Assembly: GCA_903945175.1 (NCBI GenBank)
Contig: CAJAUM010000013.1
Coordinates: forward strand, 1 to 42,604
Source: an uncultured Bacteroidales bacterium
GTDB taxonomy: Bacteria > Bacteroidota > Bacteroidia > Bacteroidales > FEN-979
Length of the DNA stretch: 42,604 nucleotides
Direction of reading: 5' to 3'
In this document: positions 11,686-25,898 of the stretch, piece by piece
How the letters are laid out: each line of letters begins with the position of its first letter
Position numbering within the stretch: the stretch's first letter is position 1
Position numbers and translations under genes: made by a program
The notes under the pieces: model-generated
The model's database searches: none
What the model was told of the DNA's origin: nothing
Seen by the model: the letters and a program-made list of their open reading frames with translations, nothing else

Positions 11686-12216
11686 TTACAGTTCCAGGTT
11701 GGCCCGGCAATTGGAGCAAAGATGCTGATCTTTTTGATCGATATCCTCCACGTAGGTGCTTGACCGCATGACGCAGGTGGGGGTATGGCAGTGAATTAAT
11801 CCAAGGGTGTGACCCAGCTCATGGATCACCTCTTTCCTTGAACGATCCAATAAAAACCGGTCATCGCTGATCATGCCATAATGTTCATTGCTGAACCGGT
11901 GAAGCGAGGCAATGGCAGTCTGCCCGCCTAAAAAGGCCTGTCCGAAGATAAAGGTAAGAATCGGTATGAAAAGATCCACATTGAATAACCCCAGGGTCTT
12001 TGCGGAACCCGGAAAGGATAACGAGTCAACCTGCTTCAGCAAGGTGTTCCCGTTGTATTGTCGCCGGGCGGGATCATAAAAGTCGCTCAGATCGATATGG
12101 CCCTCTTTGATTGAAACCGGGCAGCGAAATTCGTTTTTCACTGCCTCGGCGATCTTCTCAAGAAAATCTTTCTCGAAGTATCCAAAGGAGACCAGGGTGA
12201 TGTTTTGCAGATTCAT
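11686..12216 (-). CDS. Archaemetzincin family zinc metallopeptidase (176 aa)
   Basis: Peptidase family M54. The extended zinc motif HELGHTLGLIHC has His132, His136 and His142 as ligands with Glu133 as base. Cys143, Cys148, Cys167 and Cys170 form the second, four-cysteine zinc site typical of the family, and the Met-turn is VMRSS. No signal peptide, so cytosolic. Archaemetzincins are frequent in archaea and scattered in bacteria; substrates are unknown. It starts 9 nt after the sigma54-type response regulator and is the last gene of the sensor-regulator unit, which hints at a role in processing or turnover of a regulated protein; that link is inferred. Confidence 0.9.
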   Translation of the reverse strand: MNLQNITLVSFGYFEKDFLEKIAEAVKNEFRCPVSIKEGHIDLSDFYDPARRQYNGNTLLKQVDSLSFPGSAKTLGLFNVDLFIPILTFIFGQAFLGGQTAIASLHRFSNEHYGMISDDRFLLDRSRKEVIHELGHTLGLIHCHTPTCVMRSSTYVEDIDQKDQHLCSNCRANLEL

Positions 12217-12225
12217 CAGGCATTC

Positions 12226-13569
12226 TTATTGATCTGCAGGTTTTAAATCGTATTTTTTGATCTTGTGATACAGCGTTACCCTGTCAACCTTCAAGGCCTT
12301 GGCTGCCCGGGAGATGTTCCAGCCGTACTTATCCAGGATTTGCTGAATGAAGGATTTTTCAAAATCATCGAGACTTTCGGCTGCAGGGTTCACCATGGTT
12401 TTTTCGAGGGGAAGGTCTTTCAGTCCTATTTTTTTGCCATTCCCGACAACAATGGCGCGTTCAATCATGTTTTCCAGTTCACGGATGTTCCCCGGAAAGT
12501 TGAACTCCTGCAGTCGCTTCAACGCAGATTGATCAATGGCCACAGGAGCTCTGTTCATCGAGGTGCAATATTTATTGATAAAATAATCGACCAGCAGGGG
12601 AATATCCTCGATGCGCTCCCTCAATGGAGGAATGTGAATGTTCACTACATTCAGCCTGTAAAAGAGATCCTCCCTGAAGGTTCCCTTTTCGACCATGCTT
12701 TTCAAATCCTTGTTTGTAGCGCAGATCACCCTGAAGTCGGAACTGATCTCTTTGTTCCCGCCTACCCGGATAAAGGTTTTCGATTCCAGCACCCGCAGCA
12801 GCTCCACCTGCATTTTAGTCGAAATGGTGGCAATTTCATCCAGGAAGATCGACCCGCTGTCGGCCATTTCAAAGCGGCCTTTGCGATTGTACATGGCTCC
12901 CGTAAAGGCTCCTTTTTCGTGGCCGAACAATTCACTTTCAAGCAGGCTCTCAGTCAATGCGCCGCAATGGACGCTGACGAACGGAAAAAATTTACGCGGA
13001 GAGTTGGAATGAATGGCCCTTGCAACAAGCTCTTTGCCGGTGCCGCTCTCGCCTGTTATAATCACAGAGGAGTTGGTTTGTGCGACGCTCTCAACCTCCC
13101 TGAGCACATTTTTCATCGCCTCACTGTTCCCGATCAGGTCCTCTACGTTCTCCAGTGAGATCACCTTTTTCTTCAATGATTCATTTTCATCTGCCAAAGA
13201 AATTTGCTTCGTGGCATTCCTGATCAAATGGGTTAAATCGTCGGGATCAAAGGGTTTGGTGACATAATCAAACGCACCGTCCTTCAAGGCTTTCACTGCA
13301 GTATCCACCGTAGCAAAGGCGGTCATCATGATTACAATTGAATCTCTTTTGAGTGATTTTATCCGTTTAAGCATTTCCAATCCATCCATTCCCGGCATTT
13401 TGATATCGGCAAGGATGATGTCGAACTGGTCCGATTCAAGCATGGTCAGCGCTTTCTTTGCGTTTTCGGCGCACTCCACGCGAAATCCGTCTTCAATGAA
13501 CCAGTTTAACAGCGAATCCCTGACAGATTCTTCATCGTCAACAATCAGTATCGAGATCTTCTTCGCCAT
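12226..13569 (-). CDS. Sigma54-dependent response regulator, NtrC family (447 aa)
   Basis: Receiver domain (1-120) with acidic pocket D11/D12, phospho-acceptor Asp55 in LADIKMPG, and conserved Lys105. AAA+ activator domain with Walker A GESGTGKE (173-180), the sigma54-contacting loop GAFTGA (220-225) and Walker B IFLDEIA. The C-terminal Fis-type helix-turn-helix is NISRAAKALKVDRVTLYHKI. All motifs needed to open a sigma54 promoter are intact. It lies 12 nt after the heme-motif histidine kinase, its obvious partner. The best target in the window is the redox operon upstream, where a sigma54-like promoter and paired TGTTG-N7-CAACA palindromes occur. Confidence 0.95.
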   Translation of the reverse strand: MAKKISILIVDDEESVRDSLLNWFIEDGFRVECAENAKKALTMLESDQFDIILADIKMPGMDGLEMLKRIKSLKRDSIVIMMTAFATVDTAVKALKDGAFDYVTKPFDPDDLTHLIRNATKQISLADENESLKKKVISLENVEDLIGNSEAMKNVLREVESVAQTNSSVIITGESGTGKELVARAIHSNSPRKFFPFVSVHCGALTESLLESELFGHEKGAFTGAMYNRKGRFEMADSGSIFLDEIATISTKMQVELLRVLESKTFIRVGGNKEISSDFRVICATNKDLKSMVEKGTFREDLFYRLNVVNIHIPPLRERIEDIPLLVDYFINKYCTSMNRAPVAIDQSALKRLQEFNFPGNIRELENMIERAIVVGNGKKIGLKDLPLEKTMVNPAAESLDDFEKSFIQQILDKYGWNISRAAKALKVDRVTLYHKIKKYDLKPADQ

Positions 13570-13581
13570 AGCTATGCTCTT

Positions 13582-15246
13582 TTAATTTTTTACCAATGGA
13601 ATGGTTACAGATAAAATGGTTCCATGTCCCAGTTCAGATTTTACCTGTATTTTCCCTTTGTGGTTTTGCACAATCCCGTGTACAATGGCCAATCCCAGTC
13701 CAATGCCGCTGGCATCCTGTTTTGTGGAAAAGAAGGGCTCAAAAATATGGGGGATATCTTCAGGGGCAATTCCCAATCCGTTATCTGTAATTTCAAAGTT
13801 GACGGTATCCTCATTGGGATTTTTGGTCCTGATCGTAATCTCTCCGTTTTCAGTCGCCGCTTCGGATGCATTTACCAGCATGGCGACACAAGCCTGTTTA
13901 ATCTGGTTCGGACTGCAATAAATTAAATCGGAATGGGCATTCAAATCGATGAGAAAATTAATATTGGCAATTTTAATGGGATGGGTCATTAAATCATACG
14001 TTTCCTGCAAAATTTCATGCAGATGTTTTGGCTCAAAATCATCCTGATCCTTCCTTGAAAAATCGAGCAGCCCCTTTACAATATCACCGCACCGTTTTGT
14101 TTCATTTTCAATCAGTTTCAGATGTTTGAGCATCGAATCCCGTTTGGATGTATACAATTCGGGGTTGCTCATCTGCTTATGCAAAAGCTTGGTGTAGATG
14201 AGAATGCCCGATAAGGGGTTGTTAATCTCATGTGCAACGGAGGAGGATAATTTTCCAAGTGACGCCAAACGCTCTACATGCATCAGTTCATTCTGGGCCG
14301 CTCCAAGTTCTTCCGATTTTTTCTGGACCTTGTACTCAAGCTGCTGCGACCAGTTTTCCAGCTCATTGGTGGCAGTCTGCAAATTATCAAGCATGGCATT
14401 GAAGGCCTCGGAAACCATCCGCATGTCATCCAATTGATTGGGTTTTATTTCAACCCGGGTACTTTTATCCCCGTTGGCAACCGCAATACTCACTTTTACC
14501 AAAGCGTTCAAGGGATCCTTAATCTTTCGGCGGGTGAAAAATATTAAAACCCCCGCGAGAAGTAAGGTAGAAAAAATAGCAAGGAGGAAAAACTCGGTTG
14601 ACGATTTTGTCACTGCGGCATCCAGATTTTCCAGGGGAATCTTAATCACAAGCGATCCCAGCAGGATGTCGGTTGCCTTGTGGGCATGACATGAGCTGGT
14701 GTAACATGATTTTTCATTCAGAATGGGGGATTTGATCAGCAGATGCCTGCTGCGGTTATCGTTCTGGTTCATCTCACAATCACTGTTTACATCGATGATT
14801 TTGTAAGATTTGCCATTGGCAGGAAACATTGATTTGATGTTGGTGTGGCATTTGAGACAGTTGGGGTCGCTGTGGCTGTTCGTATCAATTGAAATGGTCG
14901 AATAAACGAGGTTGTCCTCGCTGTCGTACATGTTCACTTCATCGATACCAGGCAAGGTATTGATGACATCAAGGGTGTATTGCAGTGATTTTTTGTCGTT
15001 TTCGAGCATCGAATAATATAAAGCGCCCTCAACGATTGAACCGACATTGGTTCCGCTCTGGCGAATCATGGTGTTCAGGTAATCCTCATTGACTGATCTG
15101 AAAATGATGCTGAATGACACAAAAAGAAAAACAGACAATACAGTGATTATAAAAACAACCCTTCCGTAAATGGAGGAGCGGAATTTGACATACTTTTTAA
15201 AAATCCTGTTTCCTGTATTGTTTGTGTGTTTGGTAAAGAAAAACAT
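13582..15246 (-). CDS. Membrane sensor histidine kinase with c-type heme motifs in the periplasmic domain (554 aa)
   Basis: TM1 (about 30-50) and TM2 (about 219-238) enclose a periplasmic sensor domain. Inside it are CLKCH at 130-134, a canonical heme c attachment motif, and CYTSSCH at 181-187, a CX4CH motif also able to bind heme c in some proteins. HAMP follows (239-292), then a coiled coil, HisKA with His339 in SSVAHEINNPLSG, and HATPase_c (DNGLGIAP, GIGLGLAIV). It probably reads periplasmic redox state or a small ligand through heme and phosphorylates the NtrC-type regulator 12 nt downstream. A terminator separates it from the redox operon ahead of it, so it likely has its own transcript. 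Confidence 0.92.
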   Translation of the reverse strand: MFFFTKHTNNTGNRIFKKYVKFRSSIYGRVVFIITVLSVFLFVSFSIIFRSVNEDYLNTMIRQSGTNVGSIVEGALYYSMLENDKKSLQYTLDVINTLPGIDEVNMYDSEDNLVYSTISIDTNSHSDPNCLKCHTNIKSMFPANGKSYKIIDVNSDCEMNQNDNRSRHLLIKSPILNEKSCYTSSCHAHKATDILLGSLVIKIPLENLDAAVTKSSTEFFLLAIFSTLLLAGVLIFFTRRKIKDPLNALVKVSIAVANGDKSTRVEIKPNQLDDMRMVSEAFNAMLDNLQTATNELENWSQQLEYKVQKKSEELGAAQNELMHVERLASLGKLSSSVAHEINNPLSGILIYTKLLHKQMSNPELYTSKRDSMLKHLKLIENETKRCGDIVKGLLDFSRKDQDDFEPKHLHEILQETYDLMTHPIKIANINFLIDLNAHSDLIYCSPNQIKQACVAMLVNASEAATENGEITIRTKNPNEDTVNFEITDNGLGIAPEDIPHIFEPFFSTKQDASGIGLGLAIVHGIVQNHKGKIQVKSELGHGTILSVTIPLVKN

Positions 15247-15310: not shown

Positions 15311-15343
15311 ACAAAAAAAAACTGGTGTGCTGACACCAGTTTT
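15311..15343 (-). terminator. Intrinsic terminator at the end of the redox operon
   Basis: An 11-bp perfect stem (AAAACTGGTGT, 15318-15328, with 15333-15343) and GCTG/CAGC tetraloop is followed on the minus strand by an unbroken T-run, about 50 nt after the GcvH-like stop. It separates the four redox genes from the sensor kinase, in the 147-nt gap 15247-15393. I see no good promoter box for the kinase in that gap. Confidence 0.8.
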
Positions 15344-15393: not shown

Positions 15394-16131
15394 TCATCTG
15401 TCGGGTGTTGGCAACCGGTAAAGGTTCAAAAATTCTTTCTGAAAGTCCTTCCAGGTCTCATCCGGCAAGGCTGAAAGCGAATGATCACATAATTCGCCTC
15501 CATCCTGCAGTATCACCATGGAAGCTTCAGGGGAGTTGTTTTTCATGGTCACGGCCAGGAAATCTTTGAACCGCAGCAGCTCCCTTTCCGACCAGATGGT
15601 TGCCTCTTCAGCCAGATAGCAGGATTTTGCCTCCGCAATCCAGTTTGAGGGTTTAATTTTATAAATCCACCCTTTGCCATAGGGGTCCTCGTTCAGGGTG
15701 CCGGGATGTTCATGAAGAATCGGGTTAGTCTCAACGATTTTTCCCGAAACAGGCGAAAAGATGGCGAGTAGTTTCCCGTTCTGATCGATTTCGGTCAGTA
15801 AATCTCCCTTATTGATCATATCACCCGGGTTTTTCAGGTGGCTGAACTTCACCTCACCGGTGATATGCAGCAGCAGATCATCGAGCCCCACCTTGGCGGC
15901 TCCCGATTTTTCCAGGTGCATCCAGGTGTGATTTTTTGAATAGAACAGTCCCTGAGGTATTCTTAAAATGTTTGCAGATAGAATACCCAGTGCGTTTTTA
16001 AGCTGCCTGGTCATCTTTACCTGTTTGTTCAACATGATCCAGAAGGGGATCAGCAAAACCAGAAAAGCAATGATGATCAGGTACTCCAACCCTTTGGTTG
16101 CGAAAATATCAGAATAGCTAAATCCGTCCAT
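15394..16131 (-). CDS. Membrane-anchored GcvH-like protein (245 aa)
   Basis: One N-terminal helix (about 17-34) followed by a positive stretch (KQVKMTRQLK) anchors the protein with its bulk in the cytoplasm. Residues 60-160 form a glycine-cleavage H-protein fold (FYSKNHTWMHLE, SPVSGKIVETN, LNEDPYGKGWIYKIKPSNW). In true GcvH the lipoyl lysine is eight residues before the P of PVSG; here that position is Gly119 and a lysine (Lys120) follows, in the motif QNGK. The last 75 residues (RFKDFLAV, VILQDGGEL, WKDFQKEF) match the C-terminus of the PstS-GcvH fusion of the same operon, so they are paralogues. It is unlikely to serve glycine cleavage, as no gcvT/P is near; a role with the HybAB-type subunits is inferred. 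Confidence 0.8.
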   Translation of the reverse strand: MDGFSYSDIFATKGLEYLIIIAFLVLLIPFWIMLNKQVKMTRQLKNALGILSANILRIPQGLFYSKNHTWMHLEKSGAAKVGLDDLLLHITGEVKFSHLKNPGDMINKGDLLTEIDQNGKLLAIFSPVSGKIVETNPILHEHPGTLNEDPYGKGWIYKIKPSNWIAEAKSCYLAEEATIWSERELLRFKDFLAVTMKNNSPEASMVILQDGGELCDHSLSALPDETWKDFQKEFLNLYRLPTPDR

Positions 16132-16178
16132 TTTTTTTGTTTTTATGCAAACACCTTTCCCGGTGCGTGCTGGTTAAT

Positions 16179-17405
16179 TTATTTATTATCATGTGCCCAG
16201 GATGGGGAGTCGCGTAAAACAGGCATACGGGTTATGACCCACCTGAATATCCATATCTCTGTAAATATAACGGCCAGGGTAACCACCAGCTCCATCCAGG
16301 TAGGAACATACCGTATGGCCATATCCCACCGGAAACCGATGACAGTCACATTCAGCCTGTTCAGAATAATCCCAAGCATGGTGATGACGGAAGCAACTTT
16401 GATCATCGTGATGTTTTGGCTCCGGTAACTGTAAAAGAAGAGGATCATCGGCAAAAGTACAAACCCCAGCATCTCGAGGAGCCACCAGTAGCCCATCGGG
16501 GTGTTGAGCAGATCCCAGTTTTGTCCGTGAATAAAAACCAGCATCTGAAGAAAAAAGTAAGCAAACATGGCCCCGGCACAAATTTTTGATAATCCGATGA
16601 CGATGTTTTTTTGTGAATGGTGATTTTTTTCACTGATCTGGCTGGAGAATACTTTGTGGCTGATGGATCCTTCAAAGATGACCATGGAAAGTCCGGCGAA
16701 GATACTCGACACAAAAAACATGATCGGAATAAATTCGGAATACCACAAAGGGTGTATTTTGTCCTTGGCCATGAGGTAAAGTGCACCCAGCCCCGACTGG
16801 TGGAGGGTAGAGAGGGTAATACCGAATATTACGGCGGCGATGGTCATGCTTGAAAGGATTTTCCGGGCTCTTTTTGCGCCCAGCCACTCTGCCACAGCCG
16901 GCGAAAATTCAATCAGTTCGGCGATCATATAGAGCAGGAAATGCCACGCCACAAGGAACAGAACGGAACTGGTTCCAAAACTATTTCCGATGATCGGATT
17001 GATGACATTCCATGGCCTTCCCAGGTCCAAAAGCAATGCCCCTGCATAAAACACATAGGCGAGGAAGCCGTTTAATACGGTTACCCTGACGATGGAATGA
17101 TACTTTCGCTGGTTCAAAATATAGACCATAAAGGTGAGGACATAGGCGCCCCCTGCAAAGGCGACGCCGGTCACCACATCAAAACCGATCCATAAACCCC
17201 AGGGAATGTCCTGCGTCAGGTTTGTGATGGAGCCGAGTCCTTTCCAAAAGCGGATCACGATCAATATCAGCCCCAAAAGCATAATCGGGATGGAAATAAT
17301 GTTAAAAGGGGTAAGGAATTTACCTTTTGGTTTCAACTCGCTTACCAGGAAACGCCAGATGGTCTTGCCATCACGATCCAGAGTTATTTGGTTGTTATTG
17401 CTCAT
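16179..17405 (-). CDS. HybB/NrfD-family integral membrane subunit (408 aa)
   Basis: Polytopic protein with about ten helices and the hallmark WGLWIGFDVVTGVAFAGGAY of the HybB branch of the NrfD/PsrC superfamily, followed by YHSIVRVTVLNGFLAYV and LLDLGRPW. Such subunits exchange electrons and protons between the quinone pool and a partner ferredoxin, without heme. The start at 17405 (MSNNNQITLD) overlaps the end of the HybA-like gene by 11 nt (shared ATGAGCAATAA), which fixes both genes in one coupled unit; an in-frame ATG at 17498 would overlap by over 100 nt and gives a non-membrane, Arg/Thr-rich leader. The direction of electron flow is not determined. Confidence 0.9.
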   Translation of the reverse strand: MSNNNQITLDRDGKTIWRFLVSELKPKGKFLTPFNIISIPIMLLGLILIVIRFWKGLGSITNLTQDIPWGLWIGFDVVTGVAFAGGAYVLTFMVYILNQRKYHSIVRVTVLNGFLAYVFYAGALLLDLGRPWNVINPIIGNSFGTSSVLFLVAWHFLLYMIAELIEFSPAVAEWLGAKRARKILSSMTIAAVIFGITLSTLHQSGLGALYLMAKDKIHPLWYSEFIPIMFFVSSIFAGLSMVIFEGSISHKVFSSQISEKNHHSQKNIVIGLSKICAGAMFAYFFLQMLVFIHGQNWDLLNTPMGYWWLLEMLGFVLLPMILFFYSYRSQNITMIKVASVITMLGIILNRLNVTVIGFRWDMAIRYVPTWMELVVTLAVIFTEIWIFRWVITRMPVLRDSPSWAHDNK

Positions 17406-18267
17406 CTTTGTTCTCCTCGTTAAGGTGGTTGTTTTTTGTGGACTGGTAAATTCCCAGCAGGAACGCCGGCACAAGAACAAATATGGAGGGCACGGCATAG
17501 AGGAATCCCGTTGTGAGGGCGGGATAGGATGCCTGTTGCAGGTTGTTGTTCATCCCCAGCTCTTCAAAGGGAACAGGAGAGAGGTAGAGCCATCCGGTTC
17601 CGCCGGCGGCATGTTCACCATAGATTTGATCGATGTACAAATCAGGCTTTTCAGAAATTCTCCGGTGGGCTTCATTGAGAAGATCCCTGCGTTTCCCGTA
17701 CAGCAGGGCTTCATTGGGGCAGTTATAGGCACAGGCAGGAGGCTCACCGGTTTTAAGCCGTTCAAAACACATGTCGCATTTTTGAATTTTCGGATTTACG
17801 CTGTGATATTCAAACTTCGGACTGTCGAACGGGCATGAGACCATGCAATAACGGCATCCCATGCATTTATTGCCATCCCAGGTCACTGGTCCCATCGTGG
17901 TCTTGTGCATGGCCTGCGTAAGGCATGCCGCCACACAGGCGGGTTCATTGCAATGCATGCATTGCCGTTTGCTAAAAACTTCCCCTTTAGAAGTTTTGTA
18001 GGAATTTATCACGGTGTTGCAGGTGTCGCTGGTCTTGCGATTTGCCTGAATTTCTTTTGTGGGTAACGGTTCCGGCAACCCATGCGCGTCGGCACAGTCA
18101 AATTCGCAGCCCCTGCAGCCCTTGCAGCGGGCCGCATCATACAAGATCCCATAAAATTCCACATCGTTGTTTTTGCCCCTGGGTGCGGCAACAGCATCCT
18201 TTCCGACGGCAAGTGTTATTCCTGTAACACCCAGCAGCTTGAAAAAGCCTCTTCGGTTTAAGCCCAT
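17395..18267 (-). CDS. HybA-like Tat-exported ferredoxin with C-terminal membrane anchor (290 aa)
   Basis: The start at 18267 gives MGLNRRGFFKLLG, a twin-arginine signal, so the folded Fe-S protein faces the periplasm. Sixteen cysteines form four [4Fe-4S] sites: C48/51/54/58, C103/106/111/115, C135/138/141/145 and C164/167/179/183. A helix near the C-terminus (about 252-273) anchors it, as in HybA of hydrogenase-2. It passes electrons between the HybB-like subunit, with which it overlaps, and an unidentified periplasmic partner. An alternative upstream ATG (18330) would put 21 residues ahead of the Tat motif and overlap the previous gene. No hydrogenase or molybdopterin subunit accompanies it. 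Confidence 0.92.
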   Translation of the reverse strand: MGLNRRGFFKLLGVTGITLAVGKDAVAAPRGKNNDVEFYGILYDAARCKGCRGCEFDCADAHGLPEPLPTKEIQANRKTSDTCNTVINSYKTSKGEVFSKRQCMHCNEPACVAACLTQAMHKTTMGPVTWDGNKCMGCRYCMVSCPFDSPKFEYHSVNPKIQKCDMCFERLKTGEPPACAYNCPNEALLYGKRRDLLNEAHRRISEKPDLYIDQIYGEHAAGGTGWLYLSPVPFEELGMNNNLQQASYPALTTGFLYAVPSIFVLVPAFLLGIYQSTKNNHLNEENKDEQ

Positions 18268-18313
18268 AACGGAATAATTTAGTGTGTTATAACTTTGAGA
18301 GTTGAACGCATGA

Positions 18314-20005
18314 TTATCTTGCGGTATCAATGAATTTTGTTTGAAAATCCTCCCATACTTCAGGTCCGAGATCAGTCAGGATACTATCCTTCAGCGCACC
18401 GCCATCCTGAAGTGCAATGTGTGCATATTGCGGTGTTTGTATCATAATGACCGTCGCAAAAAAATCTTTCAACCGCGTGAATTCATCCTTCAACCACGCT
18501 CTATATTGTTCGGCCATGGATAAAAACTGGATCTCCCTGATCCAGTTTGCAGGTTCAATCAAATAAATCCAACCATCGGCGTAAGGAGAAGAATTGATGG
18601 CGGATGAATTTGATATCAGGGTCTGGTTGGATGCGGTGATGGTGCCCGAAACCGGGGAATAGAGCGTCAGATGTTTTCCATTCTGGATTATCGTGAGCAA
18701 AGGATCACCTTTTTTTATCTTCACGCCGGCAGGTTTTAAACCCACGCGTGACAGCGGACCTGTGATATGCTGCATGAAATCATCGATTCCAACCTTCACG
18801 GCGCCATCTTTTTCCATGAAGGCCCAGATATGTGTTTTGTCAAAATAGAGTCCCTTGGGAACAACTACGGAATTTTCATCAAAGGCTGAGGAGAGGGCGG
18901 CCTGGGTATTGGAAACAGCCACTCTTTTATTTCTGATGTTACGTGCCACGGCGCTTACAATGATGCCAACCACAGCCAGAGCAAGAAAAATCAGAAGGAC
19001 CATCTTCGCAATGGCAAAGGAGTCAGTTTTCGGTTCGATAATAACTGCAGAATTGGTCAGCTTATCCAATTGTGTTTGTCTTTCATTGTATACGAGATCG
19101 CTGAACCCGTATTGGCCGAGGAACTGCTGCCCATCGGTGAGCGCCCATCTCAGAAAGGCCACCTCCTGTTCATTGGATGGCCTGGCAGAAGAAACAGCGT
19201 AGATATGTCCGGATAAAGTATGGGGATATTTCCCGATCCATACTCCACGGGAGAAAGATTCCAGATCAGCATAAATATTTTCCATGTAATCAATTTTCCC
19301 GTTCCCGTTTCTATCGATGGGCACCAGTTTGATATGCTCGGCCAGACGTAGGTTTTTGGGATCGATTATGTCAACCAATTTGCAAAAGCCCAGGGCATTC
19401 GGGTCTTTTTGAATTGCAGCAACCATCTCTGCACCACCCGCTTCCTGAATTCCCGCCGTCTTAAGCTGACTGATGTTCAGAAAAGCGGAGACCCCTGCTT
19501 GAACTGATGCATCATTTAGCATATATGCATGAACAGGACTTGTTTGTGCGTTGCCAAGGATCATGCCCCAGTTTTGATTTTCGGGTTTTCCGAAGATCCT
19601 GGCCAACCCTTCGGCCGTAATACCTTTCCGGCCTATTTCATCGGCCAGCGGATTTTCGGCATTCATAACCGGCACGATCACATCGCGGCCAATCACCATG
19701 TTCCAGTTCACCTGTTTGTCAGAGGCCGCAAACGATCCATCAGAGATAAAGCCGATCCCTGCATCACTGCCCAGCAAACCCGGCAAATCCTTATCCTCAG
19801 ATTGAATGACCTGAATGTTCATTGCTGGATTTAACTTCCCGTATTCGATGGCCCACTTCGTCGTCAGATTAAATAAATCCGGCGTGGTGTACACCTGTAT
19901 CGACCCATCCTGTGAGGGGTTAGTTCCGGTTACTGCTTCGTTACTGCTTGCGATACTGACACTTAACAGTAAAATTCCGATAAGTAAAAAGATCCTGGTT
20001 TTCAT
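18314..20005 (-). CDS. PstS-like periplasmic domain - TM helix - GcvH-like domain fusion (563 aa)
   Basis: Signal peptide (1-20); a phosphate-binding-protein-like (PBP/PstS superfamily) domain, about 35-315, with motifs such as GIGFISDGSF, VIGRDVIVPVMNAENPL, ITAEGLARIFG and YPHTLSGHIYAV; a perfect EF-hand-type calcium loop DRNGNGKIDYME at 231-242; one TM helix (332-352) followed by positives (RNIRNKR); then a cytoplasmic GcvH-like domain (384-487) with KGLYFDKTHIWAFME and YSPVSGTITASN. As in the shorter paralogue, the lysine (Lys444, motif QNGK) is shifted one residue from the lipoyl position. The last 70 residues (RLKDFFATV, ALQDGGALKDS, WEDFQTKF) match that paralogue. It is the first gene of the redox operon and could carry a periplasmic ligand signal to the cytoplasmic side. 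I know no characterised protein with this order. Confidence 0.82.
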   Translation of the reverse strand: MKTRIFLLIGILLLSVSIASSNEAVTGTNPSQDGSIQVYTTPDLFNLTTKWAIEYGKLNPAMNIQVIQSEDKDLPGLLGSDAGIGFISDGSFAASDKQVNWNMVIGRDVIVPVMNAENPLADEIGRKGITAEGLARIFGKPENQNWGMILGNAQTSPVHAYMLNDASVQAGVSAFLNISQLKTAGIQEAGGAEMVAAIQKDPNALGFCKLVDIIDPKNLRLAEHIKLVPIDRNGNGKIDYMENIYADLESFSRGVWIGKYPHTLSGHIYAVSSARPSNEQEVAFLRWALTDGQQFLGQYGFSDLVYNERQTQLDKLTNSAVIIEPKTDSFAIAKMVLLIFLALAVVGIIVSAVARNIRNKRVAVSNTQAALSSAFDENSVVVPKGLYFDKTHIWAFMEKDGAVKVGIDDFMQHITGPLSRVGLKPAGVKIKKGDPLLTIIQNGKHLTLYSPVSGTITASNQTLISNSSAINSSPYADGWIYLIEPANWIREIQFLSMAEQYRAWLKDEFTRLKDFFATVIMIQTPQYAHIALQDGGALKDSILTDLGPEVWEDFQTKFIDTAR

Positions 20006-20041: not shown

Positions 20042-20057
20042 CTCAACAATAATGCCA
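20042..20057 (-). promoter_or_regulatory. Candidate sigma54 (-24/-12) promoter of the redox operon
   Basis: The minus strand reads TGGCATTATTGTTGAG: a good -24 half (TGGCA) and TTG at the right distance for -12, but GA instead of the usual GC. It is the only GG in the first 120 nt upstream of the gene. The predicted start lies about 26 nt ahead of the ATG. The nearby NtrC-type regulator makes it plausible. Confidence 0.45.
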
Positions 20058-20109: not shown

Positions 20110-20151
20110 TGTTGAGGAAATATACATTCGGGGGTGTTGAATAATACAACA
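20110..20151. promoter_or_regulatory. Palindrome TGTTG-N7-CAACA plus adjacent half-site (candidate enhancer, proximal)
   Basis: TGTTGAATAATACAACA at 20135-20151 is a perfect 5-bp-arm palindrome. A half-site with the same left arm (TGTTGAGGAAATATACA) lies at 20110-20126, 25 bp away centre to centre. They sit about 85 and 110 bp upstream of the inferred sigma54 start, the usual range for NtrC-type activator sites. Confidence 0.5.
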
Positions 20152-20222: not shown

Positions 20223-20239
20223 TGTTGAAAATATCAACA
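20223..20239. promoter_or_regulatory. Second TGTTG-N7-CAACA palindrome (candidate enhancer, distal)
   Basis: TGTTGAAAATATCAACA repeats the arms and 7-nt spacer of the site at 20135-20151, 88 bp further from the operon. Two copies with identical arms and spacing in one intergenic region argue for a shared binding protein, most simply the Fis-type HTH of the NtrC-family regulator. Confidence 0.5.
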
Positions 20240-20451: not shown

Positions 20452-22713
20452 ATGAAAACAATGTTACCAAAACAAGTGAGCCCGGTCATTTCCAGGGTTT
20501 TTTCAACAGTCGTCATCTTCTTTGTTCTCAGCTTTTTACCTGGAACAATCCATGCCCAATGGAACCCCAACACCGCTGTTAACATCCAGATTTCCAGTCT
20601 TACTGTTGCAGATATGCAGCAGGCCGCCACAACCGATGGCAAAACCTGGATTGCTTTTTATGCCCAGGTTGGAAGTAATTATAACATGATGGCCCAGCTG
20701 ATCGATGCCGATGGCTATAAACTCCTTGGAAACGATGGAGTGCTTGTCAACAGTCATACTTCAGGTTCAGCCACCTATGTATTCAACATATGTTTAGACG
20801 CCTCAAACAACCTGATCATTGGGATGCAGGATGAAAGGGAGGCAGGAAACATGCAGGCGGTAACCTATAAGGTCTCACAGACCGGCGCCATGCTGTGGGG
20901 GGCCGATGGCCTCGTCCTGGGCGGTGGCCTTGCGCCCTATCCGGCCAGTTTAAGCACCGGGGAATGTATTATTGCCTGGAATGAGACCAACAGCAACACC
21001 CTTAAGCTTCAGAAGATCACCACCGGCGGAACGCTGGCATGGACAACCCCGATTTCGGTCCTGGTTGGTTCAACAAGGACCACCCGCGGGCAGCTCATCG
21101 GAATTTCAGGTGGAAAATTCTCCATAGTTTTCCAGAAATCAGCATCCGGGGTATACACATCCCTTTATGCCCAGGCGTTCGATAATTCAGGAACCGCGCT
21201 GTATGCACCCGTGCAGATCTGTAACGAGACCACCGCTGCCTACAGGTATTATTCCCTTGCAGCGGAGGGCGACACCACATACTATGGCTATTACAGCTCC
21301 ACCGGCAACCGATTTAACTCCTACCTGCAGAGGATCAACCCCGACGGAACCATACCCTGGGGGATGAATGGTTCGAATTTCAATACCTCCACCGGTACAA
21401 ACAACAGTTACCAGATGACCACAAACATCAATATTACACCTGGTTCAAACTATGTTTGGTCGGTATGTACCTTCAGTGACCCGAATCAGACCGTATACGG
21501 GATCTACATTCAGAAATTCCTGAAAACAACGGGCGCCAGGCAGTTTACCAACACAGCCAAAGTGGTTTATCCGATCGGAAGCAACATGTACACACAGGCC
21601 GGGGCTCTTGCCCTTGTCAATGACGCACCCATGTTCATGTATTATACCTCCAATTATAAAATTTATGCCACCAGGCTTGATGAAACCGGGAATTTCGTGT
21701 GGCCGGGCAACCAGGTAGAGATAAGTTCAACCACAGCGACGGGCGGAAACGGTAAAATGCGTTACGGATTTACCCCGGTGGGTCCGAACAAGTGTGCCGG
21801 TACATGGACCGAGAAAAGAGGGAGTAATTACAATGGATATGCGCAGGGGATTTCAATAGGCGGGCTCACGGGCGTGGCCGTAGCCACCCAGGGAGGTGTC
21901 CCTGCCCAGATAACCACAGACCAGGGGACACTGCAGCTTGTTGCCACAGTATACCCTTCAACGGCCAATCAGGCCGTTACATGGAGCATCGTCCAGGGAA
22001 CAGGGGGCGCAAGTATTGACGCCAACGGGCTTGTGACCGGAATTTCAAATGGTACTGTTTATGGGGTTGCCACATCCGTGCAGGACACCACGGTTTCGGG
22101 TTCCATTCTCATCACACTCACCAACCAGAGTGGTGTGGCGCCTACCGTAGTGACGCTACCTGCATCAGATTTCACCTCCAGTACGGCCGTCATCAATGGC
22201 ACGGTCAATGCAAATAACTTTTCCGCTGATGTGATCTTTGATTATGGCACCTCTGTTTTCTATGGTCAAACAGTGCCCGGGAATCCTCCCACGGTTACAG
22301 GGACTTCAACTACATCGGTTTCTGCAGATCTCTCAGGCCTCACGCCCAACACCTTGTATCATTACCGGATCAGGGCAACAAGTGCAGCAGGAACATCAAA
22401 CGGAGCCGGTCTCACATTTTTAACCGGAGGGGTGGGAGTGAACGATAAAAATCCCCCAACCTTTGATATCTATCCTGTTCCAAACGACGGACTTTTCAAC
22501 ATCTCATTCAGCAGTGATCAGGAGTTATCCTGCAAACTTGAAATATATAACAGTCTGGGTGTGAGAGTTTACGGTGCAAAAACAATGGCCCTAAGCAGAA
22601 ACAGGGTTGAGCAGGTCGATCTGCGCACGCTCCCAAGCGGTGTCTATACAATCATTTTGCGTACTGCCGACAGCAATGTGGTGAGAAACGTGATGGTAAA
22701 CAGATACAGATAA
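20452..22713 (+). CDS. T9SS-secreted protein with Ig-like (Big2) and FnIII-like domains (753 aa)
   Basis: Signal peptide ending GTIHAQ; a large N-terminal beta-rich region (about 30-470) with repeated W-rich strands and DGT/DNSG turns that resembles cell-surface beta-propeller or exported repeat proteins but which I cannot assign; a Big2-like Ig domain (about 482-560, LQLVATVYPSTANQAVTWSI); an FnIII-like domain (562-655, LSGLTPNTLYHYRIRATSA); and a type A T9SS sorting domain (about 672-753, FDIYPVPNDGLFNISF to LPSGVYTIILRT). Export is by Sec then T9SS, giving surface display or release. No catalytic motif is apparent. The next gene, also T9SS cargo, starts 41 nt later. Confidence 0.88.
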   Translation: MKTMLPKQVSPVISRVFSTVVIFFVLSFLPGTIHAQWNPNTAVNIQISSLTVADMQQAATTDGKTWIAFYAQVGSNYNMMAQLIDADGYKLLGNDGVLVNSHTSGSATYVFNICLDASNNLIIGMQDEREAGNMQAVTYKVSQTGAMLWGADGLVLGGGLAPYPASLSTGECIIAWNETNSNTLKLQKITTGGTLAWTTPISVLVGSTRTTRGQLIGISGGKFSIVFQKSASGVYTSLYAQAFDNSGTALYAPVQICNETTAAYRYYSLAAEGDTTYYGYYSSTGNRFNSYLQRINPDGTIPWGMNGSNFNTSTGTNNSYQMTTNINITPGSNYVWSVCTFSDPNQTVYGIYIQKFLKTTGARQFTNTAKVVYPIGSNMYTQAGALALVNDAPMFMYYTSNYKIYATRLDETGNFVWPGNQVEISSTTATGGNGKMRYGFTPVGPNKCAGTWTEKRGSNYNGYAQGISIGGLTGVAVATQGGVPAQITTDQGTLQLVATVYPSTANQAVTWSIVQGTGGASIDANGLVTGISNGTVYGVATSVQDTTVSGSILITLTNQSGVAPTVVTLPASDFTSSTAVINGTVNANNFSADVIFDYGTSVFYGQTVPGNPPTVTGTSTTSVSADLSGLTPNTLYHYRIRATSAAGTSNGAGLTFLTGGVGVNDKNPPTFDIYPVPNDGLFNISFSSDQELSCKLEIYNSLGVRVYGAKTMALSRNRVEQVDLRTLPSGVYTIILRTADSNVVRNVMVNRYR

Positions 22714-22754
22714 ATGTAATATCCGTGTGGCCATGAATAATAAATTATTAGCAC

Positions 22755-25700
22755 ATGAACGTTTCTGGAGAATTTAAAGTAATCGACTTGCTGAAGCTTT
22801 TGGTTTTGGCATGTTCAATCTGTGTACTGCCATTTACGGCATTCACCCAATCCTCATCCACCCCCGTTATTTGTTATGGATCGCCCATCCAGCTCAGTTG
22901 TGATGGAGGAACAGTGACCGGCTGTGGTACGGCAGTAAGTTACGCATGGACGGGCCCATTTGGATTTACCTCAAATCTGCAAAACCCTGTCATAACTGTT
23001 GGAAATACAGGATATCCTGCAAATCCTGCCACCATGCAGACCAATACCTATAACCTTACCATTGTTGTTGGAGGAATTCCGCAAGTGGGTTCAACCACCG
23101 TTACGGTCAAACCTGCACCCGCACCATCCATAACCGGGACAGAAGCAATATGCCCGGCCAGCAGTGGAATAATCTATTTCACTGAATCAGGGATGGCAGA
23201 TTATGTATGGACGATTACCTCCGGCGGGATCATTACCGGAGGCCTTGGAACAAATGTCATTACGGTAAACTGGTTGTCGTCAGGTACACAAATCGTCACG
23301 GTGAATTATACCAATGCTTCTGGATGCCGGGCCAACATTGCCACATCAAAAACAATTACTGTCTGGCCGACACCGACCCCTGTGATAAATGGGCCTGTCA
23401 GTGTTTGTAATGGGGCCACGACGACCTATTCTACCGAGCCAGGCATGACCAACTACCAATGGACGCTTTCTTCCGGAGGGACGGTTATTTCGGGGATCAA
23501 TACCAACACCATTGTAGTAAACTGGAATACCATTGGTTTTCATACCATCACCGTAAGTTATATCAATGCCTCCGGCTGTCCGACATTGACTCCAACCATT
23601 AAGAACGTGGCGGTAAATATCTCGCCGACACCCACGATTTCGGGGTCCAATTCAACATGTTTGGGTGGTACAATCACCTTTACAACCGAAGCAGGGCAGG
23701 CACTTTATCAGTGGACAGTCAGCGCCGGGGGGATCATCACCTCCGGGGAGTTCACCAACACTATTTCCGTCAAGTGGAACGTGGCAGGTTCCGGGACAGT
23801 TTCGGTTAACTATACCAATACGAATAACTGTTCTGCACCTCAACCGGCAACAAAGACCATCACGGTTTATCCACTCCCTGTTCCTGTGATTTCAGGGCCC
23901 CTAACTTCCTGTTCCGGCACGACAGGAGTCGAATATTCAACTGCCTCCGGGATGACCAATTATATCTGGAATGTCTCCTCAGGTGGTACGATTACTGCAG
24001 GCAGCGGAACCAATACGATCATAGTGACATGGAATTTGGCTGGCAACCAAACGGTATCTGTTAATTATACGAATGCCATCGGATGTGCCGCCGCAACGCC
24101 TACATCACAAGCCGTGGTGGTATCTCCGACTCCGGTTCCAAGTATCATCGGTAACGGAAGCTCGTGCGTGGGTACGACAGGGCTTGTTTATTCGACGGAA
24201 GGGAGTATGTCAGGTTATCTTTGGACCATCTCCTCCGGCGGTACAATTACATCAGGGCAGGGGAGCTATAGCATCCATGTAACGTGGATCGAGCAGGGGG
24301 CACAAACCCTGACAGTTAATTATACGACTCCGAGCGGGTGTACTGCGGGAACCCCAACATCTAAAAGCATTACGGTTAATCCTTTACCGGTGCCGACCAT
24401 CAGCGGAAGTGAGTTTGCATGCATCACCGAAAATACAACCCACGTGACGGAAGGTGGCATGACAGGCTATCAATGGACAATTTCATCCGGAGGAACCATA
24501 CTTTCGGGAGGAGCCACCAACAGTATAGTGGTTCAATGGACAACACCAGGACAAAAAACGGTATCAGTAAATTATACGTCACCCACAGGATGTACCGCGG
24601 CGGCGGCTACTGAGAAAAACGTGATGATATCAGCGCTGCCTGTTCCGGTCATTACAGGAAATACATCGGTATGCCAGGGCTCAACCGGAGTTACCTACAC
24701 GACTGAAGATGGTATGACAAACTATTCCTGGACGATAAGTCCCGGAGGTACGATCACTTCCGGCTCAGCCACCAATGTCATTACGGTTACCTGGAATGCA
24801 CTCGGACTTCAGCAGGTTTCGGTTAATTACACCAATGTGTATGGTTGTTCTGCAGTCAATTCTACCGTCTTACCAGTTACCGTGAATCCACTCGCCATTG
24901 CCACCATTACGGGATCTAATTTTGTTTGTGCGAATTCCGGAAATTACACCTACAGCACCGAGCAGGGAATGCAGAATTATTTATGGACTGTGACTTCCGG
25001 AGGAATTATCGTCGGGGGTCATGGTACAAACTCCGTACAAATTAACTGGTCTGCTGCCGGAAACCAGTCTGTTGGCGTGGCTTACACCAGCCCGGCCGGG
25101 TGTACTACCGTGCCTGCCACCATGAATGTTACAGTCAAAGCGCTGCCCGATCCCCATGGGCCCATATCGGGTGATACGATTGTATGTAAACCACAAACAG
25201 GCGTAATCTATTCAGTGGCACCGATCCCCAATGCAGAAGGATATGTTTGGAACGTTCCGGTATTTGCCAATATAACCAGTGGAGCCAATACCAACATCAT
25301 TACAGTGGATTTCGGGACTACCGTTCAGTCGGGGAACGTTTCAGTATTTGGCATCAATTCGTGTGGGAATGGCCCCAATACACCCTTATTGCCTGTGATG
25401 GTAAATCCGGTTCCGGAAACGCCCCATGTAACCGTGAATGCACCTGACACCTTATTGTCAAGCGCGCTCACAGGCAATCAGTGGTACCATGAATACGTTC
25501 CAATTCCAGGGGCAACAGAGCCGGTTTACCTTGTTACCGCGATCGGAAGGTATTATGTGATAACCACGCAAAATGGTTGTGTTTCTGCTCCTTCTAATGT
25601 AGTCTATATTTTTCCTGTTGGGATGGAAGAGGGAGTCGATTATAGTTTGAAACTCTACCCCAACCCGGCCGACGATGAAGTTACCGTTAGCCTTACCCTT

Positions 25701-25898
25701 ACGGGGCTTGACGAAATCTTATCCATCAAGTTGGTAAACAACCTCGGGCAGGAGTCCCGTATTCTGCCTGAAACTATCGTTAAGGGGGAGATCACAAGAA
25801 TCCTCCATCTCGGGAATCCGCCCGATGGAATTTATCATCTGGTCCTGCAATTTGGGAATCACAAGGTCATCAGGAAGCTGATCATCATCAACGAGTAA
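22755..25898 (+). CDS. T9SS-secreted multi-PKD-like repeat protein (1047 aa)
   Basis: A signal peptide (LLKLLVLACSICVLPFTAFTQ, residues about 9-29) is followed by an Ig-like segment and then about nine PKD-like modules of 84 residues (252 bp). Each has the pattern P-x-I-x-G-x3-C, TExGMTNYxWTxSSGGTI, TNxIxVxW and VSVNYTNxxGC. Modules 2-9 are very similar, module 10 is diverged, and a final Ig-like domain precedes a T9SS type A sorting domain (about 962-1047, YSLKLYPNPADDEVTV). Paired cysteines in each module suggest disulfides. This architecture fits a large, stalk-like surface or adhesive protein; no enzymatic domain is present. Confidence 0.9.
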   Translation: MNVSGEFKVIDLLKLLVLACSICVLPFTAFTQSSSTPVICYGSPIQLSCDGGTVTGCGTAVSYAWTGPFGFTSNLQNPVITVGNTGYPANPATMQTNTYNLTIVVGGIPQVGSTTVTVKPAPAPSITGTEAICPASSGIIYFTESGMADYVWTITSGGIITGGLGTNVITVNWLSSGTQIVTVNYTNASGCRANIATSKTITVWPTPTPVINGPVSVCNGATTTYSTEPGMTNYQWTLSSGGTVISGINTNTIVVNWNTIGFHTITVSYINASGCPTLTPTIKNVAVNISPTPTISGSNSTCLGGTITFTTEAGQALYQWTVSAGGIITSGEFTNTISVKWNVAGSGTVSVNYTNTNNCSAPQPATKTITVYPLPVPVISGPLTSCSGTTGVEYSTASGMTNYIWNVSSGGTITAGSGTNTIIVTWNLAGNQTVSVNYTNAIGCAAATPTSQAVVVSPTPVPSIIGNGSSCVGTTGLVYSTEGSMSGYLWTISSGGTITSGQGSYSIHVTWIEQGAQTLTVNYTTPSGCTAGTPTSKSITVNPLPVPTISGSEFACITENTTHVTEGGMTGYQWTISSGGTILSGGATNSIVVQWTTPGQKTVSVNYTSPTGCTAAAATEKNVMISALPVPVITGNTSVCQGSTGVTYTTEDGMTNYSWTISPGGTITSGSATNVITVTWNALGLQQVSVNYTNVYGCSAVNSTVLPVTVNPLAIATITGSNFVCANSGNYTYSTEQGMQNYLWTVTSGGIIVGGHGTNSVQINWSAAGNQSVGVAYTSPAGCTTVPATMNVTVKALPDPHGPISGDTIVCKPQTGVIYSVAPIPNAEGYVWNVPVFANITSGANTNIITVDFGTTVQSGNVSVFGINSCGNGPNTPLLPVMVNPVPETPHVTVNAPDTLLSSALTGNQWYHEYVPIPGATEPVYLVTAIGRYYVITTQNGCVSAPSNVVYIFPVGMEEGVDYSLKLYPNPADDEVTVSLTLTGLDEILSIKLVNNLGQESRILPETIVKGEITRILHLGNPPDGIYHLVLQFGNHKVIRKLIIINE
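23125..25150 (+). repeat. Eight tandem coding modules of about 252 bp
   Basis: Module starts fall near 23125, 23380, 23632, 23882, 24134, 24388, 24643 and 24895, each opening with a Pro-x-Ile-x-Gly codon block. They encode the PKD-like array of the 1047-residue protein. DNA identity is moderate because synonymous positions differ, so recent slippage is not obvious. Confidence 0.8.

What the first reader, a model, noticed from the sequence alone, without database searches (positions are those of the whole stretch)
15394..20005. HybA/HybB-type redox operon with two GcvH-like proteins and no catalytic subunit
A Tat-exported four-cluster ferredoxin and a HybB/NrfD membrane subunit overlap by 11 nt and are bracketed by two GcvH-like membrane proteins. 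HybAB-type modules normally serve a hydrogenase, reductase or dehydrogenase, but the operon is closed by a terminator on one side and a promoter region on the other, with no such enzyme. H-protein-like carriers are known in the sHdr sulfur pathway (lipoate-binding proteins) and glycine cleavage, neither of which is here. The set could be a quinone-linked redox complex of unknown purpose, with a periplasmic ligand-binding arm (PstS-like) and cytoplasmic carrier domains on one membrane platform.
Basis: partly seen in the sequence, partly recalled or inferred. Interest (0 to 1): 0.9.

Follow-up and report, generated by a model that had tools for sequence, protein, structure and literature searches.

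The report
Self-regulated redox module without an enzyme
A conserved bacterial gene set joins a membrane electron-transfer pair to two repurposed H-protein-like membrane proteins and a heme-bearing sensor system that probably switches the set on; it looks like a real module whose exact job is unproven.

Summary
The four genes are real: a PstS-like/GcvH-like fusion, a Tat-type four-cluster ferredoxin, an NrfD subunit (11-nt overlap) and a second GcvH-like protein, followed by a terminator-like hairpin. No catalytic subunit is present. This seven-gene order appears in 22 of 31 Bacteroidales-type loci; 8 of the other 9 are cut by contig ends. None of the 31 has a multiheme gene inside the cluster; some relatives elsewhere do (4-, 5- or 13-heme). 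A sigma-54 promoter and palindromes TGTTGA-N5-TCAACA lie upstream, so the regulator probably activates this operon. Ferredoxin and NrfD keep many, not all, functional residues of HybB/Qrc. The GcvH-like domains lack a lysine in the lipoyl register and the PstS-like domain lacks conserved PstS motifs, so 'carrier' and 'phosphate arm' are unlikely. Carrier genomes are enriched in multiheme cytochromes (14/18 versus 1/21). Best reading: an inducible cytochrome:menaquinone electron-transfer module, Hmc/Qrc-like in action, with GcvH-like domains as docking parts. Five of 18 carrier genomes lack NrfD yet keep signalling genes, so a sensory role is a serious rival.

The parts
18314..20005 (-). PBP-GH: signal peptide, PstS-like periplasmic domain, one TM, GcvH-like domain with C-terminal extension, taken to be cytoplasmic (563 aa)
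17395..18267 (-). four-cluster ferredoxin with twin-arginine signal and C-terminal TM (HybA/HmcB-like), 290 aa; ORF opens at TTG 18330
16179..17405 (-). NrfD/HybB/HmcC-like quinone-type membrane subunit, overlaps the ferredoxin by 11 nt
15394..16131 (-). GH2: one TM plus GcvH-like domain with the same C-terminal extension
15318..15343 (-). terminator-like hairpin (11 pairs) with T tail between GH2 and the kinase
13582..15246 (-). sensor histidine kinase whose periplasmic domain carries CXXCH and CX4CHXH
12226..13569 (-). NtrC/AtoC-type sigma-54-dependent response regulator
11686..12216 (-). archaemetzincin (peptidase family M54)
20044..20057 (-). sigma-54-type promoter TGGCAT-N5-TTG, 38 nt upstream of the PBP-GH start
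20135..20151 (-). upstream palindrome 1 (TGTTGTATTATTCAACA)
20223..20239 (-). upstream palindrome 2 (TGTTGATATTTTCAACA), 88 nt from palindrome 1

Best explanation
The locus is an inducible redox module with its own sensor. SHOWN from sequence: seven genes that recur together; a sigma-54-type promoter with repeated upstream palindromes before the first gene; ferredoxin and NrfD that keep many functional residues; GcvH-like domains without a lysine in the lipoyl register; a PstS-like domain without the conserved PstS motifs; a kinase with two heme-attachment motifs. INFERRED: the exported ferredoxin and NrfD pass electrons between a periplasmic (probably multiheme) cytochrome and menaquinone, with protons exchanged on the cytoplasmic side, as Qrc does. 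The heme kinase reads the redox state of the periplasm, phosphorylates the regulator, and the regulator with sigma-54 switches on the redox genes. The GcvH-like domains serve as cytoplasmic docking or regulatory parts, not lipoyl carriers; the PstS-like domain would be a periplasmic scaffold or an altered ligand domain. The role of the archaemetzincin is unknown.
For: Gene order in 22 of 31 Bacteroidales-type named loci (21 by my ORF caller, two of them, L092 and L101, without a PBP domain; plus L105, whose ferredoxin it hid); 8 more are cut by contig ends and L108 lacks kinase, regulator and M54 beside it. In 49 Bacteroidales-type upstream regions: palindrome with at most 1 mismatch in 29 (0.10 expected), promoter in 34 (0.41), palindrome upstream of promoter in 23 (0.00 over 100 first-order simulations). 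Named and unnamed loci are not duplicates at 95% identity. In the own genome 6 exact palindromes; the 2 of this operon are intergenic, the other 4 lie inside ORFs. NrfD keeps HybB D58, D109, S129, R89, Y99, E148, H184 and R329; mutation of HybB D58, R89, Y99, E148 and H184 impaired function (PMC8076601, PMC13059093, passages). GCRYC, whose Tyr I equate with QrcC Y113, is in the window and in 86 of 102 ferredoxins. Multiheme PF09699: 14 of 18 carriers versus 1 of 21 chosen non-carriers, p=5e-6; by genus 11 of 14 versus 1 of 21, p=9e-6; full-length NrfA is equal, 11/18 versus 13/21.
Against: Five of 18 carrier genomes have no NrfD match at E<=1e-10 in the whole genome (G334, G397, G428, G300, G419), while congeners G418 and G302 do. 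The first four keep PBP-GH or GH, kinase, regulator and M54, so the redox triple is dispensable to the signalling part. HybB T63, S95, S105, E133, S187, S190, R265 and E268 are not kept in the window. S129 mutation had little effect in HybB. Palindromes with at most 1 mismatch number 112 in the own genome against 26 for the reversed control; most were not examined, so other targets are possible. Carriers are also richer in molybdoenzymes (18/18 versus 11/21), so the cytochrome link may reflect general respiratory capacity. The own genome has one weak PF09699 match, though 5- to 8-heme ORFs lie on its contigs C134/C135. Direction of electron flow and protein binding to DNA are not shown.
Confidence: 0.48

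Rival explanations
1. The ferredoxin-NrfD pair with its GcvH-like partners is mainly a sensory device: it reports quinone-pool or periplasmic redox state to the kinase rather than carrying respiratory flux, and the GcvH-like domains pass the signal on.
For: Five of 18 carriers lack NrfD genome-wide; four of them keep PBP-GH or GH, kinase, regulator and M54, and the three checked singly keep promoter or palindrome traces. Receiver-GcvH fusions were seen in 9 loci, in 6 of them beside a heme-type kinase (L048, L059, L061, L062, L063, L123).
Against: NrfD keeps N-side proton-path residues and the gate arginine, more than a passive sensor would seem to need; some loci show ferredoxin-NrfD-GcvH with no kinase beside them (L042, L043, L049, L050, L108).
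Confidence: 0.27
2. One reading: lipoyl-type carrier domains plus a PstS-like ligand-binding arm on a redox platform.
For: The GcvH-like part of the model matches H-protein with target TM-score 0.92, and the rest matches PstS. A Lys one residue after the lipoyl position is kept in 40 of 42 PBP-GcvH proteins, the other 2 gapped, so lipoylation is not strictly excluded.
Against: The lipoyl position itself is Gly in those 40 and rarely Lys elsewhere (4 of 120, 1 of 15); conserved PstS motifs are absent. That a lysine shifted by one is not lipoylated in lipoyl domains is recalled, not looked up.
Confidence: 0.1
3. A remnant of a hydrogenase-, molybdoenzyme- or cytochrome-linked operon that lost its catalytic gene.
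For: The nearest characterised relatives (Hyb, Hmc) have such subunits (recalled for Hmc); some relatives in other phyla carry multiheme genes in the cluster.
Against: The enzyme-free order is shared by 22 of 31 named Bacteroidales-type loci and carries conserved regulatory DNA.
Confidence: 0.04

Closest known systems
Hmc transmembrane complex of sulfate reducers
   Same: HmcB- and HmcC-like pair are the best family matches; some FeS-NrfD relatives sit beside 16-heme genes (L129, L134, L155, L157, L161, L162)
   Different: No multiheme gene in the window's locus; GcvH-like proteins and a heme kinase instead; scores below curated cut-offs. The subunit list of Hmc is recalled
HybA/HybB of [NiFe]-hydrogenase 2
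   Same: Tat-type ferredoxin plus NrfD, 11-nt gene overlap, shared quinone/proton residues
   Different: No hydrogenase subunits; NrfD 28% identical to HybB
QrcABCD menaquinone reductase
   Same: FeS + NrfD layout and, by my equation, the Tyr between cluster cysteines
   Different: Weaker family match (QrcD 1.8e-18, QrcC 8.2e-13); no cytochrome subunit here
Glycine-cleavage H protein and LbpA of the sHdr pathway
   Same: H-protein fold
   Different: Membrane-anchored, extra C-terminal segment with DGG motif, no lipoyl-register lysine; the LbpA paper (PMC6067878) was seen only in a search listing
c-heme periplasmic sensors GSU0935/GSU0582
   Same: Sensor profile matches 3b42 (E 3e-5) and the model finds it (E 3.2e-5)
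   Different: The structural match is loose (rmsd 14 A); WalK's extracellular domain fits better (4.7 A). Here a histidine kinase with two heme-type motifs

Membership tests
Hmc complex | HmcB and HmcC equivalog scores over cut-off | tested here: not met
   316.9 of 420 and 411.9 of 550 bits
Hmc complex | multiheme HmcA in the operon | tested here: not met
   none in the window's locus; no ORF with 3 or more CXXCH inside any of 31 Bacteroidales-type clusters
Group 2 hydrogenase HybOABC | hydrogenase subunits in the operon | tested here: not met
   none among the eight proteins scanned; NiFe query hits only L118 and L132 of other groups
NrfD/PsrC family | NrfD domain | tested here: met
   PF03916 6.7e-15, over cut-off
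NrfD/PsrC family | quinone-site and proton-path residues of HybB | tested here: inconclusive
   D58, D109, S129, R89, Y99, E148, H184, R329 kept; T63, S95, S105, E133, S187, S190, R265, E268 not
GcvH / LbpA lipoyl carriers | lysine at the lipoyl hairpin position | tested here: not met
   Gly at that column in both window domains and in 40 of 42 PBP-GcvH proteins (2 gapped); Lys one residue later
PstS phosphate-binding proteins | stretches conserved in PstS, taken as the anion site | tested here: not met
   AGGAGKG and RSDA-GAAE absent against 8 PstS, EF-hand-like loop kept (by eye); fold kept
c-heme sensor kinases | periplasmic heme-attachment motifs | tested here: met
   Cys and His of both motifs invariant in 37 aligned sensors; in 73 kinases CXXCH in 73, second motif CX4CHXH in 66, CX5 in 3, CX3 in 1, not found in 3
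c-heme sensor kinases | heme bound and redox-responsive | not testable with these tools
   needs protein

The most novel reading that the evidence does not exclude
GcvH-fold domains that gave up lipoate have become a family of cytoplasmic docking/regulatory domains for NrfD-type respiratory complexes: membrane-anchored copies link the redox pair to a heme sensor kinase, and receiver-GcvH fusions in sister clusters would let phosphorylation control a respiratory complex directly, beside transcription.
Probability: 0.25. Interest if true: 0.85.

Novelty: new variant of a known kind. Interest (0 to 1): 0.62.

Why it matters
It describes a conserved, apparently self-regulated electron-transfer unit of Bacteroidales, with relatives in other phyla, that has no enzyme subunit; it gives a promoter and operator that can be tested; and it points to an unexpected use of the H-protein fold in redox signalling. 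I found no description of the gene set in eight full-text searches of open papers; subscription papers were not covered.

Tried and rejected
The first sigma-54 scan used a wrong index for the -12 element and is discarded; replace it. My Tat pattern in that call was too strict; the N-termini it printed show a twin-arginine motif in most ferredoxins of L085 onwards (not in L139 or L141).

Other targets of the regulator: palindrome plus promoter occurs 4 times in the own genome, 0 for the control. One is this operon, two lie inside ORFs (L197, L208), one (C145) was not examined. Of 112 palindromes with at most 1 mismatch I looked at 4 exact and 3 one-mismatch sites beside the operon's own two; one of them (L178) is intergenic.

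A paper on sigma-54 regulons (PMC12316311) gave no occurrence of 'NrfD' or 'glycine cleavage' in its main text (find). Structure models are single chains. A PHROGs scan of GH2 gave one weak match. The charge pattern of NrfD loops was similar in loci with and without a Tat signal.

The greedy ORF caller sometimes picked a shadow ORF, so absences can be false (L105 ferredoxin, G394 GH2). The 21 non-carrier genomes were picked by me from the 149 for size and completeness. In the phylum set, L051-L058 (PstS loci) were left out of the counts.

Corrected: receiver-GcvH fusions are beside a heme kinase in 6 loci, not 9. One search was a report whose layout did not fit the form; its content is unchanged here.
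Full report
WHAT IS THERE. On the minus strand the locus reads: PBP-GH (18314-20005), ferredoxin (17395-18267), NrfD (16179-17405), GH2 (15394-16131), a terminator-like hairpin (15318-15343), then a sensor kinase (13582-15246), a sigma-54 regulator (12226-13569) and an archaemetzincin (11686-12216). The three downstream genes were missed.

CONSERVATION. I treat 31 of the 80 as Bacteroidales-type (L085-L112, L137, L140, L145; L092 is titled only 'uncultured bacterium' and L101 'Chlorobiota'). Of the 31, 22 show the seven-gene order (L092 and L101 without a PBP domain; L105 with its ferredoxin hidden by a shadow ORF). Eight are cut by a contig end; seven of these fit the order as far as they go, while L104, cut on the left, shows no M54 after its regulator. 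L108 (Tangfeifania) lacks kinase, regulator and M54 beside the four genes. None of the 31 has an ORF with 3 or more CXXCH inside the cluster; 2 have one within six ORFs (L101, L104).

THE SHORT FORM. In the window's order, 18 of 149 genomes have a GcvH-like match at E<1e-50, plus one broken copy (G312); 13 of the 18 have two such matches. Four (G334, G397, G428, G300) have only PBP-GH or GH, kinase, regulator and M54; in G419 the ferredoxin start runs in frame into the kinase end. A whole-genome search finds no NrfD of this kind in any of the five at E<=1e-10, but finds it in G418 and G302, which share genera with G300 and G419. So the redox part appears to have been lost more than once while the signalling part stayed; with draft genomes an assembly gap cannot be excluded for each case.

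OUTSIDE THE ORDER. In 296 genomes of the phylum searched with the whole PBP-GH protein, 200 had a match, many of them to ordinary GcvH or PstS. I fetched 34 stretches (one from the own genome). Of the 26 GH-centred ones, 11 show GH-ferredoxin-NrfD-GH-kinase-regulator-M54, one of them (L045) with a 4-heme gene in between; no PBP domain is fused there. In 18 of 18 such loci with GH before a ferredoxin, no Tat signal was seen, given my start-site choice. Multiheme genes lie inside the cluster in L045, L116, L127 (4-heme), L123, L125 (5-heme), L061, L141 (13-heme), and a sister cluster has ferredoxin, NrfD, a 13-heme protein, a heme kinase and receiver-GcvH fusions (L048, L059, L061; Pfam checked for L059).

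REGULATION. Upstream of the first gene is TGGCAT-N5-TTG, and further up the palindrome TGTTGA-N5-TCAACA in two copies 88 nt apart, the nearer 77 nt from the promoter. Across 49 Bacteroidales-type upstream regions (window, 30 named, 18 of the order) the palindrome with at most 1 mismatch is in 29, the promoter in 34 and the two in that order in 23, against 0.10, 0.41 and 0.00 in first-order simulated sequence. L097, L102 and L104 enter with the region before GH2, so these are lower bounds. In the L031-L064 group the counts are 3, 4 and 2 of 21, in other phyla 5, 3 and 1 of 10: the arrangement is weaker there. In the own genome the exact palindrome occurs 6 times and only the two of this operon are intergenic, but 112 places match with at most 1 mismatch against 26 for the reversed control, mostly unexamined. 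The regulator most likely acts on this operon; binding, and exclusivity, are not shown. A hairpin between GH2 (or GH) and the kinase was found in 14 of 58 loci, so kinase and regulator may be a separate unit in some.

RESIDUES. Aligned with E. coli HybB, the NrfD keeps D58, D109, S129, R89, Y99, Y141, E148, E155, H184, K198, H200, E291 and R329; it lacks T63, S95, S105, E133, S187, S190, R265 and E268. Mutation of D58, R89, Y99, E148 or H184 impaired HybB, while S129 had little effect there although its Qrc equivalent is essential (PMC8076601 and PMC13059093, passages). The window ferredoxin has four cysteine clusters and GCRYC, which I equate with the Tyr shown to matter in QrcC. This argues for a working electron-transfer pair. 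The GcvH-like domain models as H-protein but has Gly at the lipoyl position with Lys one later. The PstS-like domain keeps the fold and an EF-hand-like loop but not the conserved PstS stretches. In 37 aligned kinase sensors the Cys and His of CXXCH and of a second C-X(3-5)-CHXH motif, and Met80, are invariant. The sensor profile matches the c-heme sensor GSU0935 at 3e-5; the structural match is loose.

CO-OCCURRENCE. In 18 carrier and 21 chosen non-carrier genomes of the order: multiheme PF09699 14 versus 1 (by genus 11 of 14 versus 1 of 21); molybdopterin PF00384 18 versus 11; full-length NrfA 11 versus 13; NiFe hydrogenase over cut-off 9 versus 4, many of these partial. The cytochrome link is strong, but respiratory versatility in general could explain part of it.

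CONCLUSION. The set is a real, conserved, probably self-regulated redox module without an enzyme subunit. The most likely job is periplasmic-cytochrome:menaquinone electron transfer under redox control, with the H-protein-like domains as docking or regulatory parts. A sensory role for the redox pair is the main rival, because several genomes kept only the signalling part.

Noticed in passing
L048:10297-17548; L059:9936-17156; L061:8743-15937: Sister cluster: ferredoxin, NrfD, 13-heme protein, heme kinase and two receiver-GcvH fusion proteins, beside or in place of the main cluster.
   Followed up: partly
L213, L218, L219, L226: Short form of the locus: PBP-GH or GH, kinase, regulator and M54 without ferredoxin, NrfD and GH2; promoter or palindrome traces were seen in the three checked singly (L213, L218, L219), and NrfD is absent genome-wide.
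   Followed up: yes
ferredoxins of L031-L035, L037, L041-L050, L059, L060: These ferredoxins show no Tat signal although their NrfD has the same charge pattern and the C-terminal TM of many has a positive tail; whether they reach the periplasm is unexplained.
   Followed up: partly
L215:10404-11549: In G419 the ferredoxin start runs in frame into the kinase end, as if NrfD, GH2 and the kinase start were deleted; could be an assembly error, though no NrfD is found elsewhere in that genome.
   Followed up: partly
L221, L222, L224, L225; own genome C134/C135 (L220, L216): Four carrier genomes show a roughly 930-aa 19-heme protein, with 4- to 7-heme genes near it, on contigs other than the cluster's; the own genome has 5- to 8-heme ORFs on C134/C135. 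Possible electron partners.
   Followed up: partly
window 20452-25898: Two large genes next door look like secreted, repeat-bearing proteins with C-terminal sorting-type ends (judged by eye).
   Followed up: no
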